Assembly (NCBI GenBank): GCA_944385535.1
Contig: CALWXR010000002.1
Coordinates: 39,657-103,656, forward strand
DNA length: 64,000 nucleotides
Reading direction: 5' to 3'
Origin: an uncultured Oscillospiraceae bacterium
Lineage (GTDB): Bacteria; Bacillota; Clostridia; Oscillospirales; Oscillospiraceae
Shown here: piece after piece, positions 18,523 through 44,967 of the stretch
How positions within the stretch are numbered: position 1 is the stretch's first letter
Layout: every line of letters begins with the position of its first letter
Notes under the pieces: generated by a model
Told to the model about the DNA's origin: nothing
Databases searched by the model: none
What the model saw: the letters and a program-made list of their open reading frames with translations, nothing else
Position numbers and translations under genes: made by a program

Positions 18523-18568
18523 AGAGTACCCCCTTGCGCTCATAAGACAGGCGGCCCCAGGGGCCGCC

Positions 18569-18908
18569 TCAGACTGTCGAGAAAGTAAGTTTCCCTGTAG
18601 AAGTTTAGAAACACACACCGCGGCAAAGCCTCCGAAGTGTAAAGAGAGGTGGGCAGGCGAAGCCTGCTCGGAGGGATTGAAGCGGCAGAATGTTCCCTCT
18701 TTGCCGGAGTGCGGGCGAATCCGTACATTGTACCGCACAATCCCTCAGTCACAAATCAAAGATTTGTGACAGCTCGCTGCGGCGAGCCCGGTCGCGGCTC
18801 TGACTGCCCACTTACGCAGTCATTCACTACCGCGACTGCGCGACCCTTACCCTTTACACAAGGGAGCCTTGGGCGCTGTAAGCGCCAGAAGCTTTTTCAA
18901 CACTCTGA
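18569..18908. repeat. Family 1 TIR element, copy A, within the dap cluster
   Basis: This 340-bp block fills the 413-bp gap between dapF and dapB. Its ends are inverted repeats: TCAGACTGTCGAGAAA on the left and TTTTTCAACACTCTGA on the right. Its inner 190 bp match, with few changes, the copy at 44563-44822 in inverted orientation. On each side lies a palindrome, GCGGCCCCAGGGGCCGC (18551-18567) and GCGACCCCCAGGGGCCGC (18910-18927). They differ by one substitution and one inserted base. No convincing gene is inside; an open frame shared with the other copy looks incidental. Confidence 0.8.
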
Positions 18909-18935
18909 GGCGACCCCCAGGGGCCGCTTGAAGTT

Positions 18936-28493: not shown

Positions 28494-28764
28494 AAGGGGT
28501 TGTCTCTAAAAGCTGAGACAACCCCTTCAGGCTGTTGAAAAACCCCTTCGGGGCTTTTCAACAAAGGAGTTGCAGTCTGCTTCGCGCACTCCCTGTGCGC
28601 CTATGGCTCACAACTCCCACACTGCGCAGCCTGAGATGTATTTTCTGCCAGGTACACGCCCCGGCAGAAAATGATTGAATCTTTTTTGCCGCTGCGGCGG
28701 CAAATTCTGCGAAGCTTTTTCGACACTCTGAAGGGATTGTCTCTAAAAGCTGAGACAACCCCTT
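28494..28764. repeat. Family 1 TIR element, copy B, with duplicated flanking hairpin
   Basis: A 34-bp hairpin (GGTTGTCTC, loop TAAAAGCT, GAGACAACC) occurs at 28494-28527 and again at 28731-28764 with one change. Only the second copy is followed by a T-run (GTTTTTTATTTTT). Between them lies an element of about 205 bp (28527-28731) with ends TCAGGCTGTTGAAAAA and TTTTTCGACACTCTGA, the same terminal inverted repeats as copies A and C but a different interior. This looks like insertion into a transcription terminator with duplication of the hairpin. No gene is visible inside. Confidence 0.82.
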
Positions 28765-44540: not shown

Positions 44541-44842
44541 AAGCGTGGGAAACTCCACGCAACAGAGTGTTGAAAAAGCTTCCGGAACTTGCAGCGCTAA
44601 AGGCCCCCTTTGCACAATCCCCCAGTCACGGCTTCGCCGTGACTGGGGGATTGTGCGGTACAATGTGCGAATTCGCCCGCACTCCGGCAAAGAGAGAACA
44701 TTCTGCCGCGTCAATCCCTCCGAGCAGGCTTCGCCTGCCCACCTCCCTTTACACTTCGGAGGCTTTGGCGCGGTGCTTGTTTATAAATTCCTACGGGGAA
44801 CCTTACTTTCTCGACAGCCTGAAGCGTGGGAAACTCCACGCA
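44541..44842. repeat. Family 1 TIR element, copy C, with duplicated flanking hairpin
   Basis: The 21-base sequence AAGCGTGGGAAACTCCACG+CA, a small hairpin, occurs at 44541-44561 and at 44822-44842. Between them lies an element of about 260 bp (44563-44822) with ends CAGAGTGTTGAAAAA and TTTCTCGACAGCCTGA. The interior matches copy A in inverted orientation, with an added internal palindrome CACAATCCCCCAGTCACGGC / GCCGTGACTGGGGGATTGTG at 44614-44658. The remainder of the 44407-44967 gap shows no gene. Confidence 0.82.
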
Positions 44843-44967
44843 GATTAACGGAGTCTTTGCCTGTGAGAAAGCGGTAAAGGTTGACCGTGTGGCAATGATT
44901 TCCGATTCTCCAAACCCCCCGCCCTTTCGGATCGGTTCCTTGAAAGGCCAATGGCGGTGAATCCTTT

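What the first reader, a model, noticed from the sequence alone, without database searches (positions are those of the whole stretch)
28494..28764. TIR element lying between two copies of a terminator hairpin
A 34-bp hairpin is present on both sides of an element of about 205 bp with inverted ends TCAGGCTGTTGAAAAA and TTTTTCGACACTCTGA. Only the distal hairpin keeps a T-run, so the original terminator seems to have been split with the hairpin duplicated. Target duplications of 20-34 bp that span a full palindrome are not what common IS or MITE families make. With the copies at 18.6 and 44.5 kb, where the flanking palindrome is different but again duplicated, this points to a mobile element that recognises hairpins by shape rather than sequence. 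No such family is known to me.
Basis: partly seen in the sequence, partly recalled or inferred. Interest (0 to 1): 0.72.

Follow-up and report, generated by a model that had tools for sequence, protein, structure and literature searches.

The report
Mini-transposon that duplicates whole terminator hairpins
A small mobile DNA element, whose ends match elements of the known IS1182 family, inserts at the foot of DNA hairpins that often look like gene-end terminators and leaves a full copy of the hairpin on each side, so the length of the duplication follows the target's shape rather than a fixed number.

Summary
A 34-nt palindrome flanks a 203-bp element; the window copies at 18.6 and 44.5 kb lie between two copies of other palindromes. 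I paired 23 elements in this genome: 16 have an ungapped whole-hairpin duplication of 20-35 nt, 2 more have one with indels, 3 have different hairpins on the two sides, 2 lack a hairpin on one side. They are MITEs of the IS1182 insertion-sequence family: autonomous elements with the same kind of ends carry IS1182 transposases (3 of 3 tested) and also duplicate whole hairpins. Three orthologous sites in other species of the genus hold one hairpin and no element. Near-identical filled and empty sites of two more distant IS1182 relatives show one hairpin becoming two. The 14 hairpin-duplicating transposases tested fall on one side of a well-supported branch, apart from an IS1272-type one; IS1272's published mode removes the hairpin. 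The new part is the mode, whole-hairpin duplication, which the papers I could read only draw as a hypothetical branch. Cruciform recognition is inferred, not shown.

The parts
28528..28730 (+). 203-bp non-autonomous element (MITE), in a sub-family of 6 in this genome; longest stop-free stretch 56 aa
28528..28542 (+). left terminal inverted repeat CAGGCTGTTGAAAAA (the T at 28527 may belong to the end or to the hairpin)
28716..28730 (-). right terminal inverted repeat CAGAGTGTCGAAAAA
28494..28527 (.). left copy of the target hairpin (13-bp stem, 8-nt loop)
28731..28764 (.). right copy of the target hairpin, followed by the T-run; 1 mismatch to the left copy
18570..18907 (+). 338-bp MITE of the larger sub-family (15 members) with the same kind of ends
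18549..18569 (.). left hairpin of the 18.6-kb copy
18908..18929. right hairpin of the 18.6-kb copy; same hairpin by eye with substitutions and an indel, not scored as a duplication by the ungapped test
44563..44821 (+). 259-bp MITE of the larger sub-family
44541..44562 (.). left hairpin of the 44.5-kb copy (22-nt duplication, 1 mismatch)
44822..44843 (.). right hairpin of the 44.5-kb copy

Best explanation
The element is a MITE moved in trans by an IS1182-family DDE transposase. The transposase picks a DNA palindrome, often an intrinsic terminator between genes, by its fold. Most likely it works on the extruded cruciform: the two 3' ends of the element join the target at the 5' foot of the hairpin on each strand. 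In the cruciform these two points meet at the four-way junction whatever the stem length; on the duplex they are one palindrome apart. Gap repair then copies the whole hairpin on both sides, so the target duplication equals the hairpin. Shown: the elements, ends of the same kind on autonomous IS1182 elements, whole-hairpin duplications of varied sequence and length, and one hairpin at empty sites. Inferred: that the transposase itself reads a cruciform, the 5'-foot attack, the gap repair, and which transposase moved the window copies.
For: Own genome: 16 of 23 paired elements have an ungapped duplication whose length exceeds the hairpin span by 0-4 nt, all 16 with a stem on both sides; 2 more (C2:58226, C9:1445) by eye with indels. 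Random pairs of window positions reach the same score in 44 of 20000. 12 of the 16 have at least 5 T in the 10 nt beyond the outer foot on at least one side, against 6.5% of random single 10-mers. Same genus: of 23 PF13751 loci, 3 autonomous elements have a whole palindrome at both ends: L070 (25 nt), L069 (64 nt), L068 (25 nt, 1 mismatch; exact for 19). Wider: 7 of 21 related loci, one of them the L068 record again; Flavonifractor sp. An10, 25 of 38 element starts; a genome with 7 copies that differ from one another by at most 1-2 bases, 6 of 7 with exact 19-28 nt duplications. Transposases pass the NCBIfam IS1182 cut-off, 3 of 3 scanned. Own genome keeps a 653-bp 3' fragment, 85% identical to the IS in L114, whose outermost 26 bases equal L114's. 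Empty sites: 3 orthologous sites of the window insertion; phage Javan87 against Javan90, 26-nt hairpin once and twice; Listeria pLIS32 against 5 of 6 fetched plasmids, 21-nt hairpin once and twice. Tree: 14 of 14 hairpin-duplicating rows on one side of a branch, support 100/98. A 64-nt duplication is hard to make by a synapse on straight duplex DNA, which favours a folded target (inference).
Against: No experiment shows a cruciform or transposase activity. 5 of 23 own-genome pairs do not fit: 3 have different hairpins on the two sides, 2 lack a hairpin on one side. Different hairpins also flank 4 of 21 related loci, 1 of 7 copies in G342 and Exiguobacterium L252; E. faecium L253 and L259 show a hairpin on the right only. 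13 of 38 Flavonifractor starts showed no matching second hairpin. 4 of 16 own-genome duplicated hairpins have no T-run by my test. No intact IS1182 transposase gene was found in the window's genome, only a fragment with a stop; the genome is a draft. No same-species empty site was found for the window copy; the three orthologues are about 70% identical. A joined-flank search for one Flavonifractor site found no contiguous empty site in 20 genomes, its own included.
Confidence: 0.82

Rival explanations
1. The transposase recognises the two halves of an inverted repeat in ordinary duplex DNA, as a symmetric dimer, and cuts at the outer edges; no cruciform is formed.
For: Would also give palindrome-length duplications; filled and empty sites do not tell the two apart.
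Against: I see no shared sequence among the hairpins, and duplications run from 18 to 64 nt, which asks for a dimer of very variable reach.
Confidence: 0.15
2. The hairpin is recognised on single-stranded DNA, for example on the lagging strand at a replication fork, rather than as a cruciform in duplex DNA.
For: Hairpins fold readily on single strands; nothing here excludes it.
Against: A single-stranded target does not directly give two strand transfers one hairpin apart on opposite strands, as the duplications at filled sites suggest; inference.
Confidence: 0.12
3. The hairpins belong to the element, or the terminators were duplicated by recombination independent of insertion.
For: Most elements come with two flanking hairpins.
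Against: The hairpin sequence differs from insertion to insertion, and empty sites hold one copy.
Confidence: 0.01
4. Copies with different hairpins on the two sides arise when the two element ends join two different hairpins in one reaction, not from later recombination or misassembly.
For: The class recurs in a finished genome (50-bp mini-element at G061:C1:2975479-2975528), in a 1.05-Mb contig (L298) and in 3 of 23 own-genome pairs.
Against: Homologous recombination between copies gives the same end product, and several cases are draft assemblies.
Confidence: 0.2

Closest known systems
IS1272 and TnSha1/TnSha2 (IS1182 family, staphylococci; PMC5678879, PMC4923244)
   Same: IS1182-family transposase, 16-bp ends, hairpin or terminator targets with no sequence consensus.
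   Different: IS1272 replaces or partly deletes the hairpin and makes no duplication; here the whole hairpin is kept and copied. An IS1272-type transposase (L312, so named by me from its place beside fabI; the record says IS1182 family) lies outside the hairpin-duplicating group in the tree. Duplication is pathway b of Figure 13 of PMC5678879, drawn as a possibility.
IS1182 elements of Listeria plasmids, Streptococcus phages and Enterococcus (ISEfa7)
   Same: Transposases about 40-44% identical to that of L114; whole-hairpin duplications at L255, L256, L257 and L258; same side of the tree.
   Different: Autonomous, with CAGACTGWAGACAAAG-type ends; of the two E. faecium copies looked at, both show a hairpin on one side only.
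Autonomous IS1182 elements of Oscillospiraceae and kin (L108, L110, L113, L114, L124 and others)
   Same: Ends of the same kind, CAGNCTGTCGAAAAA and CAGNCTGTCGAGAAA in most, and the same hairpin duplication.
   Different: They carry the transposase; the window elements are 203-338 bp and carry none.
Group IIC introns (recalled, from no call)
   Same: Insert at terminator hairpins recognised by fold.
   Different: Retroelements without terminal inverted repeats or hairpin duplication; not tested here.

Membership tests
IS1182 insertion sequence family (as MITE derivative) | Transposase of the IS1182 type in autonomous partners | tested here: met
   3 of 3 scanned same-genus transposases score 307.8-388.6 bits against NF033551, cut-off 270; the window elements carry no transposase
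IS1182 insertion sequence family (as MITE derivative) | Terminal inverted repeats of the same kind as autonomous IS1182 elements | tested here: met
   MITE ends CAGRSTGTYGARAAA against IS ends mostly CAGNCTGTCGARAAA; same-genus L069 and L070 have a different variant, CAGTCTGTCAAAGAA and CAGCTTGTCAAAAAA
IS1182 insertion sequence family (as MITE derivative) | A source element in the same genome | tested here: inconclusive
   Only a 653-bp 3' fragment with an end of the same kind, 85% identical to L114
IS1182 insertion sequence family (as MITE derivative) | Palindromic target sites (published for some members) | tested here: met
IS1272-type stem-loop replacement | Target hairpin removed, no target duplication | tested here: not met
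   Hairpin kept and duplicated
MITE | Short, without a transposase gene, terminal inverted repeats, target duplication, many copies | tested here: met
   23 paired elements, 22 of 203-386 bp and one of 628 bp; longest stop-free stretch 109 aa; sub-families of 15, 6, 1 and 1
MITE | Moved in trans by the partner transposase | not testable with these tools
   needs a transposition assay

The most novel reading that the evidence does not exclude
One branch of IS1182 transposases reads the four-way junction of an extruded cruciform and joins both element ends at the 5' feet, so that duplication length is set by the fold of the target (18-64 nt seen) and not by the enzyme. The IS1272 side of the family attacks the other feet and deletes the hairpin. 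The switch between duplication and deletion is a property of the transposase lineage. By copying its own target, each insertion keeps a terminator beside the gene and makes two new landing sites.
Probability: 0.55. Interest if true: 0.75.

Novelty: new variant of a known kind. Interest (0 to 1): 0.6.

Why it matters
DDE transposases, as usually taught, make a duplication of fixed length set by the enzyme. Here the length follows the target's own palindrome, which could make these elements natural reporters of which palindromes fold in living cells. The mode is the counterpart to IS1272's hairpin removal inside one family, so the question of 5'-foot against 3'-foot attack can be tested by comparing two related enzymes. 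It also suggests how gut Clostridia can carry some tens of such elements at gene ends: a terminator hairpin is kept.

Tried and rejected
Hairpins as part of the element: rejected by one-hairpin empty sites. Chance palindromes: rejected by the random-position control and the random-pair control. A same-genus PF13751 element with ends identical to the MITEs: none among 23 loci, nearest L068. Autonomous copy in the own genome: only a fragment. Close empty site of the window insertion: the genus search covered the 136 genomes held; 120 of 136 matched some part, three of the listed matches cross the junction, at about 70% identity. Empty site for one Flavonifractor insertion (L206): no contiguous match in 20 genomes, its own included. 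A first tree lost 11 of 28 rows to a motif filter in my script and was rebuilt with 26 rows, L124 and L251 left out. L264 (90% identical Listeria plasmid) was not aligned by my script and counts neither way. Of 17 class-level loci, 3 show hairpin duplications by script (L268, L269, L272) and L277 by eye; L274 was skipped as too short, L275 and L270 gave no usable ends, L271 is the L298 place, L278 has a 10-nt repeat without hairpin, and L273, L276 and L279-L284 have none. My first genome pattern used a wrong code letter and was replaced by that. The review that mentions palindromic IS1182 targets is not held, so what it or ISfinder says of duplications was not seen; I recall, from no call, that ISfinder gives a wide duplication range for the family.

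Full report
The observation. Searches show the 34-nt palindrome at 28494-28527 and again at 28731-28764 with one mismatch, and between them a 203-bp element (28528-28730) with inverted ends. On the + strand the distal hairpin alone has a T-run after it. The copies at 18570-18907 and 44563-44821 are as described, with other palindromes on both sides; at 18.6 kb the two palindrome copies have drifted apart by substitutions and an indel. The left end motif with up to 3 mismatches is found 6 times in the window against 0.61 expected.

Survey of the genome. The window lies in a 2.85-Mb draft genome of 121 contigs. CAGRSTGTYGARAAA with up to one mismatch has 63 hits against 3 for the reversed control. 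Pairing ends in the stretches I had fetched gave 23 elements: 22 of 203-386 bp and one of 628 bp. They fall into sub-families of 15 and 6, with two single ones. Of the 23, 16 have an ungapped duplication of 20-35 nt that ends at the element; all 16 have a stem on both sides, and the duplication exceeds the hairpin span by 0-4 nt. C2:58226 and C9:1445 have the same hairpin on both sides by eye, with indels that the ungapped test misses. C30, C31 and C38 have a hairpin on each side but not the same one; C43 and C44 have none on the left. Ends at C20:4358 and C33:216, in different contigs, abut the same 33-nt hairpin, as expected for one element split by the assembly. Two further one-ended copies, C40:13327 (18 of 18 probe bases) and C35:20364 (14 of 18), also have a second copy of their hairpin downstream. 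At the level of single ends, 41 of the 58 with fetched flanks abut a stem of at least 8 net pairs, against 1.85% of 4000 random window positions. Of the 16 duplicated hairpins, 12 have at least 5 T within 10 nt beyond the outer foot on at least one side, against 6.5% of random single 10-mers, so many but not all look like intrinsic terminators.

Partner and family. The only PF13751 match in the genome is a broken 3' piece of a transposase with an end of the same kind 127 bp downstream. It is 85% identical over 653 bp to the IS in L114, and its outermost 26 bases equal those of L114. A PF13751 search over 61 genomes of the genus gave 24 places in 19 genomes, one of them the window's own fragment. 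In the other 23 loci, L065-L087, three autonomous elements show a whole palindrome at both ends: L068, L069 (64 nt) and L070 (25 nt). L068 has ends close to those of the MITEs; L069 and L070 have a different variant. Three of three of their proteins pass the NCBIfam IS1182 cut-off and match DDE transposase domains in Pfam. A scan of species genomes with the L068 transposase gave 21 loci; the record titles name Clostridia, Eubacteriales, Oscillospiraceae or genera that I take to belong there, except one titled only bacterium. Of the 21, 7 have the same hairpin on both sides (L108, L110, L113, L114, L115, L122, L124; L108 is the L068 place again), 4 have different hairpins (L109, L111, L112, L119), and the other 10 show one end only or are unclear.

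Other genomes. In Flavonifractor sp. An10, 44 end hits led to 37 regions with 38 element starts; 15 have a hairpin duplication by the pairing script, which prefers pairs with a duplication, and 10 more by search for a second copy of the hairpin, 25 of 38 in all; the IS among them, L208, is the L113 place again. In the class-level search 76 of 196 genomes have an IS1182 match, 18 of them over the cut-off. One, G342, has seven copies in one 1.05-Mb contig, each at most one base different from L299 over 1583 bases: six have exact duplications of 19-28 nt, each of another hairpin, and the seventh has two different hairpins. Ten relatives in phages and plasmids were fetched. Streptococcus phages YS387, phiJH1301-3 and Javan87 and Listeria pLIS32 duplicate hairpins; Exiguobacterium L252 has different hairpins; E. 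faecium L253 and L259 have one on the right only; L251, L254 and L260 gave no usable ends.

Empty sites. The left flank of the window insertion joined to its right flank was searched in the 136 held genomes of the genus. Three of the listed matches cross the junction: G118, G037 and G038, at about 70% identity, each with one hairpin of its own sequence between the small upstream gene and rpiB (by eye; for G037 also by folding). At near identity, phage Javan90 has one 26-nt hairpin where Javan87 has two around a 1538-bp insert, and four Listeria plasmids have one 21-nt hairpin where pLIS32 has two around 1522 bp; a fifth, from L. grayi, has one hairpin with the loop inverted. A sixth fetched plasmid, L264, was not aligned by my script. 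Twenty Listeria records matched in all, pLIS32 included; six others were fetched.

Phylogeny. With 26 transposases, the 14 that showed hairpin duplication lie on one side of a branch with support 100/98, together with L252 and E. faecium L253, which are not scored. An IS1272-type transposase from S. epidermidis (L312; I name it so from its place beside fabI, the record says only IS1182 family, and I did not study its insertion site) and nine elements without hairpin duplication lie outside. Two of these outsiders, L273 and L284, sit between flanks that are inverted repeats of each other, as an IS1272-like mode might leave. The rows were chosen for having a readable outcome and the root is a midpoint, so the tree shows clustering, not frequency or direction.

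Mechanism. What is shown: hairpin targets, no evident sequence consensus, duplication equal to the hairpin within a few bases, junction at the foot. What is inferred: extruded cruciform, attack at the 5' feet, gap repair. PMC5678879 (abstract, results sections 22 and 24, first part of the discussion and passages read) proposes removal of the hairpin after attack at the 3' feet and draws duplication after attack at the 5' feet as pathway b; I saw no example of it in what I read. PMC4923244 (passages and first part of the discussion read) reports partial deletion of hairpins and no duplication, and cites a review that some IS1182 members target palindromes. My searches for a published whole-hairpin duplication showed none in the listings, but they cover open papers only and I opened four of those listed: the two above, PMC9782665 (passages) and a prokaryote MITE review, PMC10969869, whose text does not hold the word IS1182 (passages).

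Verdict. The family is known and hairpin targeting in it is known; the duplication mode, its spread through one branch of the family and its MITE offspring are the new part, as far as I could search.

Noticed in passing
L277 and L266: The loop of the hairpin is inverted between the two copies beside the L277 element (agat against atct), and between a Listeria grayi plasmid and the other Listeria plasmids. Could be a trace of cruciform cutting or of exchange within the palindrome.
   Followed up: no
G000:C30, C31, C38; L109, L111, L112, L119; L298; L252; G061:C1:2975479-2975528: Elements flanked by two different hairpins; recombination between copies, misassembly, or the two ends joining two hairpins cannot be told apart here.
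   Followed up: partly
G061:C1:2975479-2975528 (Oscillibacter valericigenes, L142): A 50-bp element made of little more than end sequence of the IS, in a finished genome, with a different hairpin on each side.
   Followed up: partly
G062 (Flavonifractor sp. An10), e.g. L189, L200, L202, L207: A separate MITE group whose one end begins with a 32-bp palindrome of two end motifs; of 12 such starts, 10 have a second copy of their hairpin.
   Followed up: partly
G000:C31 right flank (C31:19476 onward) and L093: A 56-nt palindrome next to the C31 element resembles a sequence downstream of the small gene in G014; possibly a palindromic repeat family of the genus.
   Followed up: no
G000:C24:2962-3589: A 628-bp member of the 203-bp sub-family, with an insert of about 425 bp inside, still between duplicated hairpins.
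   Followed up: no
L273, L284: IS1182 elements on the IS1272 side of the tree whose flanks are inverted repeats of each other, as if inserted in the middle of a palindrome.
   Followed up: partly
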